A stretch of DNA of 32,941 nucleotides, from NCBI GenBank assembly GCA_945487905.1, contig CALYTW010000013.1, positions 1-32,941 of the forward strand, in the 5' to 3' direction. The translations under genes and the position numbers were made by a program. How positions within the stretch are numbered: the first letter of the stretch is position 1; every line of letters starts with the position of its first letter. Below the pieces are notes generated by a model. That model saw only the letters and a list, made by a program, of their open reading frames with translations. It had not been told where the DNA came from and searched no databases. Below are positions 9,333 to 32,941 of the stretch, one piece after another. This stretch comes from an uncultured cyanobacterium (GTDB lineage Bacteria > Cyanobacteriota > Vampirovibrionia > Gastranaerophilales > Gastranaerophilaceae).

Positions 9333-10088
9333 ATGTCATCAATCTACAGTAATTTTAACGTAAATAGCGGTTTTAATTTATCTCAAATAGGTTTCAGAAG
9401 CAATCCGACAACCTATATTCCCAAGGGTGTTCCGAGCAGTGACGGATATTCATCCAATCCGCTGTACGACAATTTCGGAACAAAGGCTGAAATTGAAACT
9501 GTAGCAAAAACAAATCCACGTATAAGAGAAATCCTTTCCGAACATAACCTCCCGGTTAAAGTTAATGAAAAAGAACTGGAAAAACTTAAAAACGGACATC
9601 TTCGGTCAACACGTGTTACTGCATCAAAAATATACTCAAGCCTTCCGGCTGAATTAAAATCAGAAGTGAATCCTGTTTCTCTACAGGAAGCTGCAATGTT
9701 CCACGATTACGGCAAAGTGTTAATTCCGGAACACGTCTTAAACAAAGAAGGTAAACTGACAGACGACGAATGGGAAATAATGGAACAACATTCCGAACTC
9801 GGGGCTGAACTTTTGAAAGACAAAAACCTTGATGAAAGAGCAATCGAATTGATAAAATATCATCATCAGAACAGAAATAACAGCGGATATCCTGCAGTTT
9901 TAAATGAATTTGAATATGGTTTAGACTCAGAGATTTTGTCTGTAGCAGATAAATATGAAGCATTGAGAGAGGAAAGAAGCTATAAACCAGCAATGACAAA
10001 AGAAGAAGCCTTGTCCGTAATTGCCGAAGATGTTGAAGCCGGCATGGTTTCTAAAGAGGTTTACAACGCTCTTAAGAAAGCAGTCTAA
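9333..10088 (+). CDS. HD-domain protein, HD-GYP-like (possible cyclic-di-GMP phosphodiesterase)
   Basis: From the ATG at 9333 the product is 251 residues. Residues 1-50 are rich in Ser, Asn and Gly and look disordered. An HD domain follows, with His89 (GHL), the HD pair in MFHDYGK (124-125, Lys128), His153 and HH at 177-178. The segment after HH resembles the HD-GYP signature (HHE..DGxGYP) but reads HHQNRNNSGYP, so Glu and the Asp-Gly are missing while Gly-Tyr-Pro stays. It could be a diverged phosphodiesterase or only a sensor. The frame extends to a TTG at 9315, but a TATATATA -10-like stretch just upstream makes the ATG more likely. Its stop overlaps that of the convergent GT10 gene. Confidence 0.75.
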   Translation: MSSIYSNFNVNSGFNLSQIGFRSNPTTYIPKGVPSSDGYSSNPLYDNFGTKAEIETVAKTNPRIREILSEHNLPVKVNEKELEKLKNGHLRSTRVTASKIYSSLPAELKSEVNPVSLQEAAMFHDYGKVLIPEHVLNKEGKLTDDEWEIMEQHSELGAELLKDKNLDERAIELIKYHHQNRNNSGYPAVLNEFEYGLDSEILSVADKYEALREERSYKPAMTKEEALSVIAEDVEAGMVSKEVYNALKKAV

Positions 10089-11056
10089 TTTTTTGAACCC
10101 GCTAAATAGTTTTCGTACAAATAGTCAAACGGTTTTGTGAACTTTTTAACCCGTTCATAGTTATCAAGTATCGCAGGAAGCCGTCTTTCGTATTCCTCTT
10201 TTGTGCATTCCTTGAGAACCTTTTTGATATCTGATTTTGTATCTATTTGAATAATTCCGTCAGTATTAAAGAAATCGCCAATTTTTGTTGCACCAAGATA
10301 TATCGGAATCGTTTGATTTGCAAAAGCACAAATAATAATTTCCGTAAAAAGATATGCTTCTTGTGCGTTTTCAATACAAATATTATAACGATAGTCCCTT
10401 AAAGGCTCGGTCAAAGTAACATAACCGCCTCCGTCAAATGTTCCAAAGGTATCGGCAAGTTTTTCATTTTTGCATTTCCAAGCCAAATCATATCTGAAAT
10501 TGTGCAATTTGCACATGTGTTTAGCAGAAGATAAAATAGAAACATTTTTTGTCTTATGCTTATGAATATCAGAAGGTGCAAATGAACTGTTGAAAAGTGT
10601 TGCCCCAAAAGGAACAAAACGTGCATTATCAAGCTTGTTTAATAAATTTTCAGAGTAAGTAAAAATAAGATCAAAATCTTTTTCTAAACCTTTAAATTTA
10701 TCAAAAAGTTTGTAAGATTTTGGAACAATAGTTTCTGTTTCAGTCAAAAATCCGTATCTTCTGTCTGGGTTGCCCATTGTTTCAAGCATTGATTCATGTG
10801 AATAGAAATGCGTTTTTAAACCAAAATTATATCTATCCCAAGTAAAATAGCGTGATTCCCTATATGGATGAGTTCTGTAATGCTTGTCTCTGATAAAAAA
10901 TTCCTCAAGCTTTTCGCCGTATTCGTTGTATAAGTTAGAATCTCCGTCAATTATTTTGGCTTTGTTATTGTAATTAGGCAGATAAACATAGCCGTATGCT
11001 TTGTTTTTAACACGTCTTAGATGCCTGTATAGATATTCTTCTATTTTATTGAACAT
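10085..11056 (-). CDS. Glycosyltransferase family 10 (alpha-1,3/1,4-fucosyltransferase-like)
   Basis: The C-terminal half carries the GT10 hallmark: YNICIENAQEAYLFTEII, then IPIYLGA, equivalent to the FxExS..dYvTEK...PVYxG block that binds GDP-fucose. The likely reaction is transfer of fucose from GDP-fucose onto N-acetylglucosamine or glucose in a surface glycan. I start it at the ATG at 11056, which has a near-ideal AAGGAG 6 bases upstream (323 residues). A longer in-frame ATG at 11095 lies inside the upstream gene. It overlaps that gene by 11 bp and is the last gene of the glycan locus. It has no room for a terminator, as its TAG overlaps the stop of the convergent HD gene. Confidence 0.87.
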   Translation of the reverse strand: MFNKIEEYLYRHLRRVKNKAYGYVYLPNYNNKAKIIDGDSNLYNEYGEKLEEFFIRDKHYRTHPYRESRYFTWDRYNFGLKTHFYSHESMLETMGNPDRRYGFLTETETIVPKSYKLFDKFKGLEKDFDLIFTYSENLLNKLDNARFVPFGATLFNSSFAPSDIHKHKTKNVSILSSAKHMCKLHNFRYDLAWKCKNEKLADTFGTFDGGGYVTLTEPLRDYRYNICIENAQEAYLFTEIIICAFANQTIPIYLGATKIGDFFNTDGIIQIDTKSDIKKVLKECTKEEYERRLPAILDNYERVKKFTKPFDYLYENYLAGSKN

Positions 11057-11678
11057 AAGTATCTCCTTCCGGAAAATGATAACTCCAATTAACATTTTCC
11101 TTTATCATTTTTGCAGGAGAGCCGACATATAAAGCATTTGGTATAGTACAATCTCGAGTAACATTCGCTCCTGCACCAAAAATACAATTATCTGCAATTG
11201 TAACACCTTTGAATACTGAAACATTCGAGGTTAACCAGCAGTGATTGCCGATTGTAATATTTCCACCTCTGTTCAAAACCTTTCCGTCCGTCGTTTGGTA
11301 AATACAGTGTGCATCAGATGCCGAAATCTCAACATTCGGTCCCATCATGCAATCATCTCCGATTTTTACATGCAAATTTGGTTCTCGGTATACGTTAATT
11401 CTGCAATTAAAGTTCGGTAAAAGATTATGACCAACCTCAAGGGAGCCATTTTCCGACCAAACATGAAGCTCCATTTTTTTTAGCTTTGTTCTGGACGACT
11501 TGAATGTTGCAGTACAATTGTTTCCCATAATGAGCTTTGAATTGCAAAATCTTACGCAAGGTTCGTGCAAGTATACCGTCGAATTGCTTCCCGTCCAAAT
11601 TATATGCAAACCCCAAACAAAAAAAACTCTGTGCTTTTTACCGTTTTTATCTATTTTATAAATTTTATTGTTTTTCAT
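11046..11678 (-). CDS. Left-handed beta-helix acyltransferase (WbbJ-like)
   Basis: Hexapeptide-repeat (LbH) proteins of this type move acetyl groups from acetyl-CoA onto sugars. The product is 210 residues from the ATG at 11678. The longer frame starts at a TTG inside the upstream gene with no better ribosome site. Imperfect hexapeptides run from about residue 85 to 185 (for example [34 protein letters not shown]). The probable catalytic His is in SDAHCIY, and the C-terminal VGSPAKMIK is typical of maltose/galactoside O-acetyltransferase relatives. It overlaps both neighbours (14 bp upstream, 11 bp downstream), so it is part of one transcript. Confidence 0.85.
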
Positions 11679-12342
11679 TTTTATATTTTTCCAAAAATTC
11701 AATCGCTTTATTTACATCCTGATAAGGACATTCTTTGAGAATTTTTTCATCCATATCCCACCATTTTAATTCAAGTAATCTCTTAATGGTTTCTTCGTCA
11801 AACCTGTATTTAATAACTTTTGCCGGAACTCCGCCTACTACGGCATAAGGAGGAACATCTTTTACTACAACAGCACCTGCGGCAATAGCAGCACCGTCTC
11901 CAACAGTAATACCATCCCTTATAAATACGCCATGACCTATCCAAACATCATTTCCTATCTTGCAAGGAATTGAAGTATTGTCATACTCATCTTTTTTGGA
12001 ATTATTCCAATCTAAAAATCCGCAATAGAAATAAGATGAGGTTGAAAGGAAATTCAACGGGTGATTTCCCGGTGCAATTGAAACATCTCTCCCAATTGAA
12101 CAGTATTTTCCGATTGTAGTCTGCGGATTTCCTACGTAGCATGATTTGTCACAGTATGAATATTTACCCATAACGCAAGAAATTCTTCTCGAAGCTCGTT
12201 CAATTCTGTTTTTTCCTTTTCTTCGGGTTATGTATTGCTGCAACGGCTTTCGAACAGATTTTACCGGAATAAGCCCCGCCAAAACACTCGCAATAGCATA
12301 CTTTACACTTAAAACATCTTCTATAACATACTTCAGTTTCAT
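11665..12342 (-). CDS. CatB/WbbJ-type sugar O-acetyltransferase
   Basis: 225 residues with LbH hexapeptide repeats: [44 protein letters not shown], ending [13 protein letters not shown]. The catalytic histidine is expected in APGNHPLNF. The long insert between SIAPGNHP and CKIGNDVW (rich in Tyr, Trp, Asp) is typical of the CatB-like branch. The N terminus carries an [16 protein letters not shown] stretch, basic and amphipathic, which is also seen in the acetyltransferase at 14179-14754. Its ATG lies 2 bp after the GT11 stop, and GAGG near that stop is the ribosome site. The acceptor is presumably the fucosylated glycan built by neighbouring enzymes. Confidence 0.87.
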
Positions 12343-12344
12343 AT

Positions 12345-13226
12345 TTACGCCTCTATTTTAATCCAATCTTCACAAATAATTTTATCATCTCCGTCAAGCC
12401 AAGGAGAAGGTGCTGTTATTATTTTATCGGGATTTTCAATCAACCATGCCGCCCACCAGGAGTATGAACTGTTTGCTATTATTCCGTGCTTGCATGCCCT
12501 CATCAAACGCATATTTTCGTGGAAAGTTTCACGAGTTTTATTCTTTTCGCCTATTAGCTTAAACTCACAACCTATATCAAATTCGTTATTGATAAAATCA
12601 GGGTCTTCGGCACAAAAAACAAAGAATGTCGGATTTTCAACCCGTTCTTTAATATACTGTACAGCTTTTTTGTAATAGTCCATCGAAATTACATATCCCA
12701 ATTTTATATAGTCATCAAGCCTTACATGAATAAAAACTGGGTTGTTTGAAGCTTCAATTTCAGCCATCAGGGCTTTGTTATAGTCATCATTTTCTCTCAA
12801 AGGAGGCATTTCGAAATCTTTAAGAAGCTGCGTTCTTATTGATTTAAAATATTTTTCATTCTGAAAATATCCCGTAAAATATCTGTATTTGTCATCTTTA
12901 AAGATATTTTCATCATAATTAAAAGCATCTCTTTCTTTATATTTTTTTGAAAGTCCTGTTAGATTCATTATTTTTATCGCAAGCGTTTGAAATTTACCCG
13001 CAAGTTTAGCTTTAACATTTGGCAATATAGTTATCTCATAATAATTTATTTGCAAACCGTTTTTGTATTTTCCGGTATCGCCGTCAATATATTTTTTTGC
13101 TTTTTCAAAAGAAGATATATCGTAAAATACATTTGCTCCTGTTTTTTCCTCAAGCGCTCTTCCAAGAGCATATTCGAACATTTGGTTTCCAATACCGCCA
13201 AGAAATTTTATTATTTTTGCTGCCAC
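12345..13226 (-). CDS. Glycosyltransferase family 11 (alpha-1,2-fucosyltransferase-like), intact copy
   Basis: GT11 enzymes transfer fucose from GDP-fucose to galactose in alpha-1,2 linkage. The 293-residue product has [18 protein letters not shown] at residues 8-25, FIHVRLDDY at 165-173 (motif I, normally HxRRGDY) and [11 protein letters not shown] near the C terminus (motif III). Motif I has Leu170-Asp171 where most relatives have Arg-Gly; the key Arg169 is kept. The start is a GTG one base after the GT2 stop, with AAGGA as ribosome site. Codons 1-94 fall in the direct repeat also present at 14908-16025, where only a truncated copy remains. Confidence 0.9.
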
Positions 13227-14060
13227 TTTATATTTCCTTATATTTTTTTAACTTTATTTTTAACCCTAAAATCGTCAAAATCTTATATTTTTCATCTCCA
13301 TACCACTCGTTTCTTACAGCAAAAAGTTTTTCAAATAATCCGCTCTTTTTCTTATGGTAATCTGTAATAGTTTTCATAATTTTTTTTTGCAACACAATAT
13401 CGTCGGTTAAAAAGCCCAAAAACTTTGCTTTTATTTCTTTTTCTGTTTTGTATGCCTGCTTGTTTGTCTTGTGGTAAAGTGAGTTTTGAGACATTCTGTA
13501 TTTTATCAGAGGCTCTTGTATGTTATAAAATTTCAGATGTTCCATCGCTCTTGAAAAGAACTCATAATCTTCCGCAGTTCTTAAATCAGGGTTATAATGC
13601 AGTCCGTATTTTCTAAAATCTTCCAGCCTCAGCATAGCAGTTGGCTGACTCAAAATTGCACCGCACAATAAATCCACAAATTTCGGATTCTCGGGCATTT
13701 GAAAAATTTTTTTATGAGGAAAACACTCAAGCAGAGAACCCACTGCAGAAATTTCAGGATGTTCATCCAAAAATTTTGCCTGTTTTTCTAATCTTTCCGG
13801 ATAAGCTATATCATCAGAATCCTGAAATGCCGTATATTTTCCTTGTGCCATATTAAGCAGTCTGTTTCTGGTCTCAGAAACACCTATATTCCGCTCATTT
13901 TTAAAAAATTTGATTCTGTTGTCATTGAAGGAATGTATAAATTCTGTAATATCTTTATCCGAACCGTCATCAACAATAATAAGTTCAAAATCGCTGAAAG
14001 TTTGGTTTAAAATACTTTCAACAGCTTCCCGCAAATATTCTTCTTTTGTGTTATATACCG
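12943..14060. repeat. Long direct repeat, copy 1 (about 1118 bp)
   Basis: Same orientation as 14908-16025, offset by 1965 bp, and identical wherever I compared it, including both encoded proteins and the opposite-strand frames. It covers the first 94 codons of GT11 and nearly all of the upstream GT2. The left edge is a T6 run (copy 1 has T7). At the right edge the copies first differ at 14061/16026, differ at three positions in the next 25 bases, and then diverge entirely upstream of the GT2 start. Confidence 0.95.
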
Positions 14061-14085
14061 GCATTAAAACCGAAATTTCAGGCAT
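13228..14085 (-). CDS. Family 2 glycosyltransferase, copy A
   Basis: A 285-residue GT-A fold enzyme. It has SVLMPVYNTKEEYL at the N terminus, the nucleotide-sugar site IIVDDGSD (36-43), RNIGVSETRN, and the metal-binding DSDD at 89-92 in AFQDSDDIAYPERL. The C-terminal basic stretch may hold it at the membrane. It should add one sugar to a lipid-linked glycan; donor and acceptor cannot be read from sequence. It is followed after one base by GT11. An AGAGGAG ribosome site precedes the ATG. It is the same as copy B (15193-16050) except for three residues in the first nine (P2/S, E3/K, P9/S). Confidence 0.92.
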   Translation of the reverse strand: MPEISVLMPVYNTKEEYLREAVESILNQTFSDFELIIVDDGSDKDITEFIHSFNDNRIKFFKNERNIGVSETRNRLLNMAQGKYTAFQDSDDIAYPERLEKQAKFLDEHPEISAVGSLLECFPHKKIFQMPENPKFVDLLCGAILSQPTAMLRLEDFRKYGLHYNPDLRTAEDYEFFSRAMEHLKFYNIQEPLIKYRMSQNSLYHKTNKQAYKTEKEIKAKFLGFLTDDIVLQKKIMKTITDYHKKKSGLFEKLFAVRNEWYGDEKYKILTILGLKIKLKKYKEI

Positions 14086-14178
14086 ATATACTCCTCTTAT
14101 ACATCCTTACATAGCAACACATATTAGACAAAGCGTCTTATCTTTGAGTGTAAAGTAATAATTAATAAGTGTCAATAA

Positions 14179-14754
14179 TTAATCGTAGTAATTAATAAAC
14201 TTCTTTTCTTCTTTTAATCTGTCGAATTGCTCAATATTTCTGTATTTAAACACTTGTGCCGGGTTCCCGCCAACAATTGCACAACGCGGAACTTCTCCAT
14301 GTACAACGGCTCCTGCCTGAATAATAGCACCCTCGCCAATTTTAGTACCAGGTAGTATCATAACCCCAGTACCAATCCAGCTAAAATCCCCAATCTCGAC
14401 ATTTTTTATAATATTATCTGTACTGTAAGGTATAGTTGTTCCGTTATCATAATCATGATTTGAGGTTAATATACGAACATCTTGACCGAATTGGCAGTAA
14501 TTCCCGATTATCAGGTTACCAAAACCATCTACTTTTAATCCGTTTATACGAACATTGTCCTTTATTATTGTATTTTTAGTACAATGTGACCTGCCCAAAC
14601 ATATAAAATTTTTGCCAATCTCTTTTGCTCTAGTTACTATTTTATAACCGTACAAAAATGTCTTAATTCTGTCACGGATTCTGCGTTTCACACTTTTCAC
14701 GGGTATAAATATTACCGCCAGTTTTGCCGTTATTTCTACTAAAAAATCAGACAT
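14179..14754 (-). CDS. LbH sugar O-acetyltransferase between the two direct repeats
   Basis: 191 residues. An N-terminal basic amphipathic segment (IFIPVKSVKRRIRDRIK) precedes LbH repeats: LIIGNYCQFGQDVRI, VEIGDFSWIGTGVMI, TKIGEGAIIQAGAVV and the closing IVGGNPAQVFKYR. The probable catalytic His is in TSNHDYDNG. It likely acetylates a sugar of the surface glycan. Its ATG overlaps the TGA of a remnant SGNH gene (ATGTCTGA), showing it once followed such a gene directly. It lies in the 1965-bp unit bounded by the two direct repeats, so repeat recombination would delete it. Confidence 0.87.
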   Translation of the reverse strand: MSDFLVEITAKLAVIFIPVKSVKRRIRDRIKTFLYGYKIVTRAKEIGKNFICLGRSHCTKNTIIKDNVRINGLKVDGFGNLIIGNYCQFGQDVRILTSNHDYDNGTTIPYSTDNIIKNVEIGDFSWIGTGVMILPGTKIGEGAIIQAGAVVHGEVPRCAIVGGNPAQVFKYRNIEQFDRLKEEKKFINYYD

Positions 14755-14815
14755 TTAAAATAAGCTCCTTTTTCAATGTGTCGTTGATAAGCTCAGATGC
14801 TTTAAGAGCACCTTT
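14747..14815 (-). pseudogene. C-terminal remnant of an SGNH-like gene
   Basis: Reading the minus strand from 14815 to a TGA at 14747-14749 gives KGALKASELINDTLKKEL followed by ILNV. This aligns without gaps to the last 22 residues of the SGNH-like protein at 16228-17100 (KGAKKISRIINDILEKEF then CLKV), with 13 of 22 identical. No start or upstream part remains; the frame runs straight into the tail of the chimeric frame at 14814. It is a ghost of a second SGNH gene, mostly deleted. Confidence 0.75.
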
Positions 14816-15191
14816 ACAAATGTTTCTTAAGCGCATTTATAATATCTGCATAAACCTCAAGTTCTTTCTCAGAGGATGTAAATATTATTTTTTGCAAAAA
14901 TGCTTTATTTTTTGAAAGTCCTGTTAGATTCATTATTTTTATCGCAAGCGTTTGAAATTTACCCGCAAGTTTAGCTTTAACATTTGGCAATATAGTTATC
15001 TCATAATAATTTATTTGCAAACCGTTTTTGTATTTTCCGGTATCGCCGTCAATATATTTTTTTGCTTTTTCAAAAGAAGATATATCGTAAAATACATTTG
15101 CTCCTGTTTTTTCCTCAAGCGCTCTTCCAAGAGCATATTCGAACATTTGGTTTCCAATACCGCCAAGAAATTTTATTATTTTTGCTGCCAC
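14814..15191 (-). pseudogene. Truncated GT11 fused to the tail of an XRE-type regulator
   Basis: Residues 1-94 are identical to the intact GT11 at 12345-13226. The frame then switches to NKAFLQKIIFTSSEKELEVY and about ten more residues. That tail matches the C terminus of the XRE regulator at 17171-17482 (NELQKIIHTSSEKELKLY). All GT11 catalytic motifs (HxR..D, SYSWW) are lost, so it cannot be an active fucosyltransferase. The GTG start and ribosome site are the same as in the intact copy, so a 125-residue protein may still be made. The joint lies in an A/T run (about 14908), which fits an illegitimate recombination event. Confidence 0.85.
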
Positions 15192-16025
15192 TTTATATTT
15201 CCTTATATTTTTTTAACTTTATTTTTAACCCTAAAATCGTCAAAATCTTATATTTTTCATCTCCATACCACTCGTTTCTTACAGCAAAAAGTTTTTCAAA
15301 TAATCCGCTCTTTTTCTTATGGTAATCTGTAATAGTTTTCATAATTTTTTTTTGCAACACAATATCGTCGGTTAAAAAGCCCAAAAACTTTGCTTTTATT
15401 TCTTTTTCTGTTTTGTATGCCTGCTTGTTTGTCTTGTGGTAAAGTGAGTTTTGAGACATTCTGTATTTTATCAGAGGCTCTTGTATGTTATAAAATTTCA
15501 GATGTTCCATCGCTCTTGAAAAGAACTCATAATCTTCCGCAGTTCTTAAATCAGGGTTATAATGCAGTCCGTATTTTCTAAAATCTTCCAGCCTCAGCAT
15601 AGCAGTTGGCTGACTCAAAATTGCACCGCACAATAAATCCACAAATTTCGGATTCTCGGGCATTTGAAAAATTTTTTTATGAGGAAAACACTCAAGCAGA
15701 GAACCCACTGCAGAAATTTCAGGATGTTCATCCAAAAATTTTGCCTGTTTTTCTAATCTTTCCGGATAAGCTATATCATCAGAATCCTGAAATGCCGTAT
15801 ATTTTCCTTGTGCCATATTAAGCAGTCTGTTTCTGGTCTCAGAAACACCTATATTCCGCTCATTTTTAAAAAATTTGATTCTGTTGTCATTGAAGGAATG
15901 TATAAATTCTGTAATATCTTTATCCGAACCGTCATCAACAATAATAAGTTCAAAATCGCTGAAAGTTTGGTTTAAAATACTTTCAACAGCTTCCCGCAAA
16001 TATTCTTCTTTTGTGTTATATACCG
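14908..16025. repeat. Long direct repeat, copy 2 (about 1118 bp)
   Basis: Second copy of 12943-14060. It holds all but the first eight or so codons of GT2 copy B and codons 1-94 of the truncated GT11. The sequence between the copies (14061-14907) holds an acetyltransferase gene and remnants of an XRE and an SGNH gene. No insertion sequence or integrase borders either copy. Confidence 0.95.
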
Positions 16026-16050
16026 ACATTAAAACCGAAATTTTAGACAT
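15193..16050 (-). CDS. Family 2 glycosyltransferase, copy B
   Basis: 285 residues, the same as copy A (13228-14085) after residue 9, with SKISVLMSVYN in place of PEISVLMPVYN at the start. All catalytic features (VDDGSD, DSDD) are intact, so it should be functional. It is preceded by AGAGGA and a leader sequence unrelated to that of copy A, so the two copies may be expressed differently. It is followed after one base by the truncated GT11. A TATAAT lies at 16110-16115 upstream on the same strand, but without a clear -35 element. Confidence 0.9.
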   Translation of the reverse strand: MSKISVLMSVYNTKEEYLREAVESILNQTFSDFELIIVDDGSDKDITEFIHSFNDNRIKFFKNERNIGVSETRNRLLNMAQGKYTAFQDSDDIAYPERLEKQAKFLDEHPEISAVGSLLECFPHKKIFQMPENPKFVDLLCGAILSQPTAMLRLEDFRKYGLHYNPDLRTAEDYEFFSRAMEHLKFYNIQEPLIKYRMSQNSLYHKTNKQAYKTEKEIKAKFLGFLTDDIVLQKKIMKTITDYHKKKSGLFEKLFAVRNEWYGDEKYKILTILGLKIKLKKYKEI

Positions 16051-16227: not shown

Positions 16228-17100
16228 TCAGACTTTTAGACAAAACTCCTTTTCCAAGATATCATTAATAATCCTCGAAATCTTTTTAGCACCTTTTATG
16301 TTCAAATGATGTTCATCATAAAATTCTTCATGCTCAAACCCGTTATCGTCATACAGGTTTAATATTTTAACTTTGGGATGTTTTGAACACGCAGAATATA
16401 ATTTTTCAAACAGAATCTCTTTTTCAGGCAAAGTATTTCTGTATTCAGCCGGCATGGGAGATATTACAATAAGCAAATTTTGGTTGTTTTCTTGAATTGC
16501 TCCCATAAATTTTTCAAAATATTCCATTTGAGAACTCTCACGCTGATTTCCCTTATAATGCTTTAATGCTATTTTTTTAGCTTTTTCAGGATTTATATTG
16601 GTAGTATCAAAATAATCTTTTGGCATACCCCCTCTGTAATCCGGATTCTTTTCGGTTTTTTCATAAAACTCATCGACCTTTGATTTAAAGTGTTTTTCAA
16701 ACCACGGTAAATGCTTCTTTTTTGCAATTTCAGGAAACTGATAATCAATTCCGTACATAACTTTGTATAAAACAGCAAGCTTCTTTTCATTTGTTTTTAT
16801 CAGACAATGCCCCGGAGTAAATACAGAAAACGACAAAATAATGTTTTTTATTTTCGGGTTTTCACTATACAAAAGATTGTATAATTTATAAGAATAGTAC
16901 AAATCCTGCGACGCCATGCTCATATTTATTCCCGAATCATCAGGAATATACGAACCCATGTGAGAAGAACCCAAGGCAAGCGTTTGATAATCTTTCACAT
17001 GCTTATAAGCACAGTACGTACGAATTATACCAGGCAGATACAAAACTTTTCCCCTTAATATATCAATAAACTCTTGTACAAATCTTATTTTCACACGCAC
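16228..17100 (-). CDS. SGNH-like protein of the glycan locus
   Basis: About 290 residues, no signal peptide or convincing transmembrane helix. LALGSSHMGSY near residue 43 looks like SGNH block I (nucleophile Ser47), and FYDEHHLNIKGA near 261 looks like block V (Asp-x-x-His). ISPMPAEYRN lies between. Proteins of this kind in polysaccharide loci remove or transfer acyl groups, but the activity here is not shown. Start is uncertain: TTG at 17103, GTG at 17100 or GTG at 17094, all behind one GAGG; I chose 17100. It lies 70 bp after the XRE gene. A remnant of a second copy of this gene is at 14747-14815. Confidence 0.7.
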   Translation of the reverse strand: MRVKIRFVQEFIDILRGKVLYLPGIIRTYCAYKHVKDYQTLALGSSHMGSYIPDDSGINMSMASQDLYYSYKLYNLLYSENPKIKNIILSFSVFTPGHCLIKTNEKKLAVLYKVMYGIDYQFPEIAKKKHLPWFEKHFKSKVDEFYEKTEKNPDYRGGMPKDYFDTTNINPEKAKKIALKHYKGNQRESSQMEYFEKFMGAIQENNQNLLIVISPMPAEYRNTLPEKEILFEKLYSACSKHPKVKILNLYDDNGFEHEEFYDEHHLNIKGAKKISRIINDILEKEFCLKV

Positions 17101-17170
17101 CAATCCTCTGTCACTTGTTTTTACACAACTGCAAAAACTCTTATGCTGTTAACGGAATTACAAATATCTT

Positions 17171-17482
17171 CTAATCGTATTTTATAATTTCCAAATACAA
17201 TTTCAACTCTTTTTCTGAAGAAGTATGAATAATTTTCTGTAATTCATTTTTACGTTCAGAAATAATGCCACTCTCTGCTATTCCAAAATCTTTAAAAGAC
17301 AGCTTTAAAATTTCAGCTATTTTAAAGAAATTATCCAGAGCAGGATAATTTTTACCGGTTTCGATTTTACTAAGATGTTTTTCGCTTATACCAGCTTTTT
17401 CAGCAAGTTCAGATTGTCTTAAACCCTGCTCTTTTCTGGCATTTTTAATAATACCTGCCACATATTCTTTCGTATAATCCAT
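17171..17482 (-). CDS. XRE-family helix-turn-helix regulator
   Basis: A 103-residue protein with a Cro/C1-type HTH over about residues 8-62 (IIKNARKEQGLRQSELAEKA, then GISEKHLSKIETG). A short helical tail, LQKIIHTSSEKELKLYLEI, follows. It is the first gene of the leftward glycan locus and faces the divergent SGNH gene across 183 bp. A perfect palindrome TTATCTT-N6-AAGATAA starts 10 bp upstream of its ATG and would suit autorepression. The same tail sequence, diverged, ends the chimeric frame at 14814-15191, so a paralogue once existed there. Confidence 0.9.
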   Translation of the reverse strand: MDYTKEYVAGIIKNARKEQGLRQSELAEKAGISEKHLSKIETGKNYPALDNFFKIAEILKLSFKDFGIAESGIISERKNELQKIIHTSSEKELKLYLEIIKYD

Positions 17483-32836: not shown

Positions 32837-32865
32837 ATCATAGCATGTTTTACAGCAATTGTAAA
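32837..32865 (-). promoter_or_regulatory. Promoter of the TPR-GT9 gene
   Basis: Minus-strand TTTACA (32860-32865), a 17-bp spacer and TATGAT (32837-32842), starting about 22 bp before the ATG. It has the same two hexamers and spacing as the murA promoter. Confidence 0.7.
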
Positions 32866-32941
32866 CAATTGTAACAAATTTGGTCTGGTTGTGAAATTAT
32901 ATCTTTTGAAAATACTTTATATATATGTAAGCGATAAACAA

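What the first reader, a model, noticed from the sequence alone, without database searches (positions are those of the whole stretch)
12943..16050. 1.1-kb identical direct repeats that could switch off an acetyltransferase
Two copies of about 1118 bp lie in the same direction, offset by exactly 1965 bp, with no difference seen. Recombination between them would remove one GT2, the truncated GT11 and the acetyltransferase at 14179-14754 in one step, leaving GT2-GT11 intact. This would change surface glycan acetylation in part of a population. Identity over this length suggests recent duplication or ongoing gene conversion. The deletion is inference; the repeats are seen.
Basis: partly seen in the sequence, partly recalled or inferred. 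Interest (0 to 1): 0.75.

Follow-up and report, generated by a model that had tools for sequence, protein, structure and literature searches.

The report
Recent duplication in a sugar-coat gene cluster
A gut-type bacterium carries a perfect 1.1-kb repeat of one and a bit sugar-transferase genes in a surface-sugar cluster; it looks like a recent accidental duplication that could be lost again together with an acetyltransferase gene, which is ordinary bacterial genome behaviour rather than a proven on/off switch.

Summary
12943-14060 and 14908-16025 are identical over 1118 bp at an offset of 1965, and found nowhere else in the 1.66-Mb draft genome. Looser homology runs 25 bp further, to the GT2 start codon, with 3 mismatches. 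Deletion between the repeats would remove exactly 1965 bp, including acetyltransferase AT1, and leave intact GT2 and GT11 genes.

The copies are not equivalent. GT2b-GT11 keeps the gene order of another species in the genus (single copy, L095). The upstream copy is derived: its GT11 breaks after 95 codons at an A-run and is fused in frame to the tail of a lost XRE-type regulator. Such regulators often sit beside glycan genes in this genus.

Best reading: a recent illegitimate partial duplication, possibly joining two alternative modules, in a variable fucosyltransferase cluster, probably unstable through general (RecA-type) recombination. Nothing shows a working or reversible switch. The next-longest exact direct repeat in sampled relatives is 125 bp. 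Deletion is one-way. No reads were available, and an A-R-X-R-B loop in a 115-contig draft does not fix copy number or exclude a mixed population. Precedents exist in pneumococcal, Vibrio vulnificus and Haemophilus capsule loci.

The parts
12943..14060 (.). Repeat copy 1 (exact, 1118 bp): GT2b except its first 8 codons, plus the first 95 codons of the intact GT11
14908..16025 (.). Repeat copy 2 (exact, 1118 bp): GT2a except its first 8 codons, plus the 95-codon GT11 fragment
14061..14085 (.). Residual homology beyond the exact repeat (matches 16026-16050 with 3 mismatches), ending at the GT2 start codon
16026..16050 (.). Partner of 14061-14085; GT2a starts MSKISVLMSVYN, GT2b starts MPEISVLMPVYN
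15193..16050 (-). GT2a glycosyltransferase, full length, derived copy
   Evidence: GT2 family hit to its near-identical twin GT2b
14814..15191 (-). GT11 fragment (95 aa, without the HxRRxD-type motif) fused in frame to the C-terminal tail of a lost XRE regulator; probable pseudogene
   Evidence: no Pfam hit; XRE tail match at 14838-14918, 63% identity, E 0.0018
14814..14907 (-). Remnant of the XRE regulator gene (tail LQKIIFTSSEKELEVYADIINALKKHL), 59 bp upstream of AT1
14179..14754 (-). AT1: hexapeptide-repeat (LbH) O-acetyltransferase-like protein, the gene that a 1965-bp deletion would remove
13228..14085 (-). GT2b glycosyltransferase, copy in ancestral synteny with GT11
   Evidence: G009 aligned across GT11 and GT2
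12345..13226 (-). GT11 fucosyltransferase-family protein, full length; motif HVRLDD where the relative has HVRRDD
11665..12342 (-). AT2: hexapeptide acetyltransferase, downstream gene
11046..11702 (-). AT3: hexapeptide acetyltransferase
10085..11095 (-). GT10-like alpha-1,3-fucosyltransferase
   Evidence: 2nzw, E 7e-6 over about 58 aa
16228..17103 (-). SGNH1: DUF1574-like protein upstream of GT2a; would remain after the deletion
   Evidence: (below the curated cut-off)
17171..17482 (-). XRE-type regulator, intact, 67 bp upstream of SGNH1; paralogue of the remnant at 14814

Best explanation
This is a recent partial segmental duplication inside a variable surface-glycan gene cluster. A block carrying GT2 and the first 95 codons of GT11 came to lie upstream of the ancestral GT2b-GT11 pair, joined at an A-rich microhomology into the tail of an XRE regulator gene that preceded AT1. 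The result is SGNH1-GT2a-GT11'/XRE'-AT1-GT2b-GT11-AT2-AT3-GT10. The two 1118-bp copies should recombine by ordinary RecA-type homologous recombination. The expected products are (a) a one-step, irreversible 1965-bp deletion that drops AT1 and restores a single GT2-GT11 pair, (b) amplification of the AT1 unit, and (c) gene conversion that keeps the interior identical. Shown: the repeat, its edges, the fusion, and the ancestral synteny of copy 1. Inferred: the microhomology joining, the instability, and the effect on glycan acetylation.
For: Exact 1118-bp repeat, present twice in the genome. Left edge sharp at AAAAAA(A)TA(TA)AAG, where GT11 gives way to an XRE tail in frame. Right edge is a GT2 start codon with 3 mismatches in 25 bp, next to unrelated upstream DNA. 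The G009 homologue aligns without a break across GT11 and GT2 (69% DNA) and is followed by AT2 and GT10 (L095), so copy 1 is the ancestral arrangement. XRE genes of this type lie beside GT2, AT or SGNH1 genes at many loci in the genus (L138, L139, L146, L150, L152, L153, L155, L162, L165, L166, L168, L172; a few of these loci overlap one another). The deletion product keeps intact GT2 and GT11 ORFs. Precedents: RecA-dependent loss of a duplication in up to 45% of colonies in Staphylococcus lugdunensis (PMC5004866); capsule loss by duplication or deletion within the pneumococcal capsule operon (PMC4243769); repeat-mediated wzb deletion proposed in V. vulnificus (PMC7247339).
Against: No reads, no strain genomes and no independent record of the junction were available (the viral contig scan for the junction was empty). 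The source is a 115-contig draft, and some small contigs in it end in repeats of only about 30-66 bp. The order of events is not resolved: none of the other genomes of the genus that were searched (65 in all, own genome included) holds a near-identical GT2 or GT11.
Confidence: 0.68

Rival explanations
1. Assembly view of a mixed population, or of a repeat with uncertain copy number. The graph A-R-X-R-B is a simple loop that an assembler can unroll into two copies, whatever the true mix of A-R-B (deleted), two-copy and multi-copy cells. Small differences between copies may also have been smoothed to 100%.
For: Draft of 115 contigs with several small contigs ending in repeats of about 30-66 bp, yet an 1118-bp exact repeat is resolved inside a 33-kb contig without N. 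The loop topology is the one repeat type that can be unrolled without long reads (general knowledge).
Against: All four junctions are in sequence without N and need reads that cross them. The flanks differ at both ends, and three differences between the copies at the right edge were kept.
Confidence: 0.2
2. Evolved phase-variation switch: direct repeats maintained so that part of the population loses AT1 and presents a less acetylated glycan.
For: The deletion geometry is clean and leaves working neighbouring genes. Repeat-mediated capsule variation is known elsewhere (PMC7247339; PMC4243769).
Against: The deletion is not reversible. No comparable repeat was found in the sampled glycan loci of related species; the next-longest exact direct repeat there is 125 bp. 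The unit carries a broken GT11-XRE fusion, which looks like debris. Identity alone needs only recency.
Confidence: 0.08
3. A special case of the best explanation: fusion of two alternative modules, XRE-SGNH1-GT2-GT11 from one strain joined to XRE'-AT1-GT2-GT11 of another (a merodiploid), so that recombination returns the cell to the first form.
For: Both GT2 copies are preceded by a modifier-type gene and, before it, an XRE gene or remnant with similar spacing (59 and 67 bp). The GT2 5' ends differ as alleles would. XRE beside SGNH1 (L138, L139, L152, L155) and XRE beside an AT1 homologue (L168) both occur in other species. Transformation-generated merodiploids are known, including strains with two capsules (PMC3784515).
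Against: No donor allele was found, and the order of events is unknown. In most related loci the XRE gene is divergent from the glycan genes, not co-directional.
Confidence: 0.3

Closest known systems
Spontaneous duplications in pneumococcal capsule genes (cap3A, cap8E, tts)
   Same: Direct duplication inside a glycan locus that can be excised by recombination
   Different: There the duplication lies within one gene, breaks it, and is reversible. Here the repeat flanks another gene, and loss removes that gene for good (PMC4243769 and the papers it cites)
wzb deletion between repeats in the Vibrio vulnificus capsule operon
   Same: Gene inside a polysaccharide operon flanked by direct repeats whose recombination would delete it, leaving a locked variant
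   Different: Repeats there are short octamer arrays; here one 1118-bp coding repeat. The deletion was observed there by PCR, not here (PMC7247339)
Tandem gene duplication and amplification (isd of Staphylococcus lugdunensis; capB of Haemophilus influenzae)
   Same: Long identical direct repeats expected to expand and contract by RecA
   Different: Those units are whole loci with dosage effects; here a 1965-bp unit with one broken gene, and instability not tested (PMC5004866)

Membership tests
Recent tandem/segmental duplication | Two near-identical copies in the same genome, with novel junction(s) and single copy in relatives | tested here: met
   1118/1118 identity; two copies only; single-copy homologous pair in G009; novel GT11'/XRE' junction
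RecA-dependent gene duplication-amplification | Copy number changes between cells, abolished without recA | not testable with these tools
   Needs reads or cultures
Phase-variation locus by direct-repeat deletion | Both forms seen in one population or in several strains | not testable with these tools
   No strain genomes or reads of this species available; no junction record in viral contigs
Phase-variation locus by direct-repeat deletion | Repeat conserved as a device in related loci | tested here: not met
   No exact direct repeat longer than 125 bp in the sampled loci of related genomes; the 1118-bp sequence has no near-identical copy in the genus
Transposon or insertion sequence duplication | Transposase, terminal inverted repeats or target-site duplication | tested here: not met
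   No inverted repeats of 40 bp or more in the window; the repeat holds GT2 and part of GT11 only. Short terminal repeats were not searched for

The most novel reading that the evidence does not exclude
Two alternative glycan modules, each headed by its own XRE regulator, have been fused in tandem. The cell then carries both modifier genes (SGNH1 and AT1) and can fall back to the first form in one recombination step: a natural merodiploid stage in the serotype turnover of an uncultured gut lineage.
Probability: 0.25. Interest if true: 0.4.

Novelty: new member of a known kind. Interest (0 to 1): 0.25.

Why it matters
If real in the population, it catches a glycan locus in the middle of a rearrangement and gives a concrete 1965-bp deletion to look for in reads from an uncultured bacterium. 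It would show, in a group whose genetics is little known, the duplication-and-loss route known from pathogen capsules. It does not imply a new mechanism.

Tried and rejected
Mobile element: rejected (no transposase and no long inverted repeats in the repeat). Plasmid or phage origin: no similar DNA in either collection at megablast sensitivity, and no viral contig with the junction. Horizontal donor: 383 genomes of the family gave no near-identical copy; the best is G009 at 69%. Conserved repeat device: glycan loci (317 kb) and control loci (251 kb) of relatives hold no comparable exact repeat. A shared 26-mer inside GT11 (13086-13111) that matched many relatives looked odd; in the one locus where it was located (L173) it lies in different flanking sequence, and it was dropped as an A/T-rich match. 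The promoter scan did not clearly exceed shuffles (49 vs 40), so no operon claim is made. A PDB sequence search with GT11 found nothing. The viral, plasmid and phage searches state that records of the window's own genome may be left out, so their silence is weak evidence.

Full report
CHECK OF THE OBSERVATION. The direct repeat is real in the assembly: 12943-14060 equals 14908-16025, 1118 bp, no mismatch, offset 1965. It occurs twice and only twice in the 1,657,606-bp draft genome, of which the window is the whole contig 13. It is the only exact repeat of 30 bp or more in the window. BLAST carries the homology to 14085/16050 (1143 bp, 99.74%), i.e. to the GT2 start codons, with three mismatches all in the last 25 bp. 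If three differences fell at random over 1143 bp, all would land in that end with a probability of about 1e-5. With 0/1118 differences, the 95% upper bound on divergence in the interior is 0.27%.

ANATOMY. All genes here run on the minus strand. In the direction of transcription: XRE regulator 17171-17482; SGNH1 (weak DUF1574 match) 16228-17103; GT2a 15193-16050; a 125-aa ORF 14814-15191; AT1 (hexapeptide acetyltransferase) 14179-14754; GT2b 13228-14085; GT11 12345-13226; AT2; AT3; GT10-like fucosyltransferase 10085-11095. The 125-aa ORF is not simply a truncated GT11. Its first 95 aa are identical to GT11; the last 30 (tail KAFLQKIIFTSSEKELEVYADIINALKKHL) match the C-terminus of the XRE regulator in the same cluster (63% over 27 aa, E 0.0018). 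The switch happens at an A-run: GT11 reads TCAAAAAAATATAAAG and the fusion reads TCAAAAAATAAAGC. This looks like an illegitimate, microhomology-type join (inference).

WHICH COPY IS OLD. In another species of the genus (G009, L095) one contiguous GT2-GT11 pair (GT11 73% protein identity, DNA 69% across both genes) is followed by AT2, an NAD-epimerase-like gene and GT10. The window's GT2b-GT11-AT2-AT3-GT10 has the same order apart from the gene between AT2 and GT10, so copy 1 is ancestral and copy 2 derived. GT11 is rare in the genus (5 of 65 genomes, own genome included). The cluster lies between ycsF/HD-GYP and murA/mfd. In G024 ycsF and murA are only about 2.8 kb apart without it, and in G010, whose MurA is the closest (93%), the genes found beside HD-GYP and beside murA have no glycan-cluster signature. 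The cluster is therefore a variable insertion.

WHERE THE XRE REMNANT COMES FROM. XRE genes of this type sit next to GT2, AT or SGNH1 genes at about ten loci in other species, including XRE beside an AT1 homologue (L168) and XRE beside SGNH1 homologues (L138, L139, L152, L155). In the window both GT2 copies are preceded by a modifier gene and, 59 or 67 bp before that, by an XRE gene or its remnant. This parallel suggests that two alternative modules may have been fused, but no donor allele was found, so a simple segmental duplication into an XRE gene remains at least as likely.

WHAT IT WOULD DO. Deleting between the repeats gives the same product from either copy, 1965 bp shorter, with intact GT2 (with the GT2a start) and GT11, and without AT1 or the fusion. 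The mechanism would be general homologous recombination; long identical repeats in bacteria behave this way (RecA-dependent loss in up to 45% of colonies in S. lugdunensis, PMC5004866). The same pairing also allows amplification and gene conversion. The deletion is one-way, so 'switch' is the wrong word unless the lost DNA is regained by transfer.

LIMITS. There are no reads and no strain genomes. A loop A-R-X-R-B can be unrolled by an assembler into two copies even if the population holds deleted or amplified forms, and small differences can be smoothed out (general knowledge). The draft has 115 contigs, and some of the small contigs examined end in repeats of about 30-66 bp, so a resolved 1118-bp repeat deserves caution. 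All four junctions are nevertheless present without N, and the three edge mismatches were kept.

COMPARISON AND NOVELTY. Repeat-mediated capsule variation is known: V. vulnificus wzb (PMC7247339), pneumococcal capsule duplications (PMC4243769), amplified capB of H. influenzae (cited in PMC5004866), and merodiploids by transformation (PMC3784515). This is a further instance of a known kind, in a lineage known here from draft genomes. The search for a conserved device was negative: sampled loci of related genomes hold no exact direct repeat longer than 125 bp. In one of them (G004, L112) two acetyltransferase genes share a patch of about 190 bp with one mismatch inside otherwise diverged genes, which suggests local recombination between glycan genes elsewhere in the genus too.

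Noticed in passing
window 12345-13226: The intact GT11 has HVRLDDY where its relative in G009 has HVRRDDY (the family's HxRRxD-type motif); one conserved arginine is replaced by leucine, so its activity may be altered.
   Followed up: partly
L112 6252-6442 and 8377-8567 (G004:C67): Two hexapeptide acetyltransferase genes share a near-identical patch of about 190 bp (1 mismatch) inside otherwise diverged genes, which looks like local gene conversion in a glycan cluster of a related species.
   Followed up: partly
window 10085-13226: A GT11 and a GT10-like fucosyltransferase in one cluster suggest a fucosylated surface glycan, possibly Lewis-like; GT10 assignment by PDB match 2nzw, E 7e-6.
   Followed up: partly
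window 32856-32941: The contig ends in an approximately 86-bp repeat, 97% identical to one inside contig 12 and 82% identical to one in contig 2: a dispersed short repeat family.
   Followed up: no
L111 7138-7302 and 12343-12507 (G040:C23): Two copies of a roughly 165-bp sequence with ends like CAACACAATTATxATTGTGT lie 5.2 kb apart in a cluster with several acetyltransferase genes; it may be a small non-coding mobile element.
   Followed up: no
   Followed up: no
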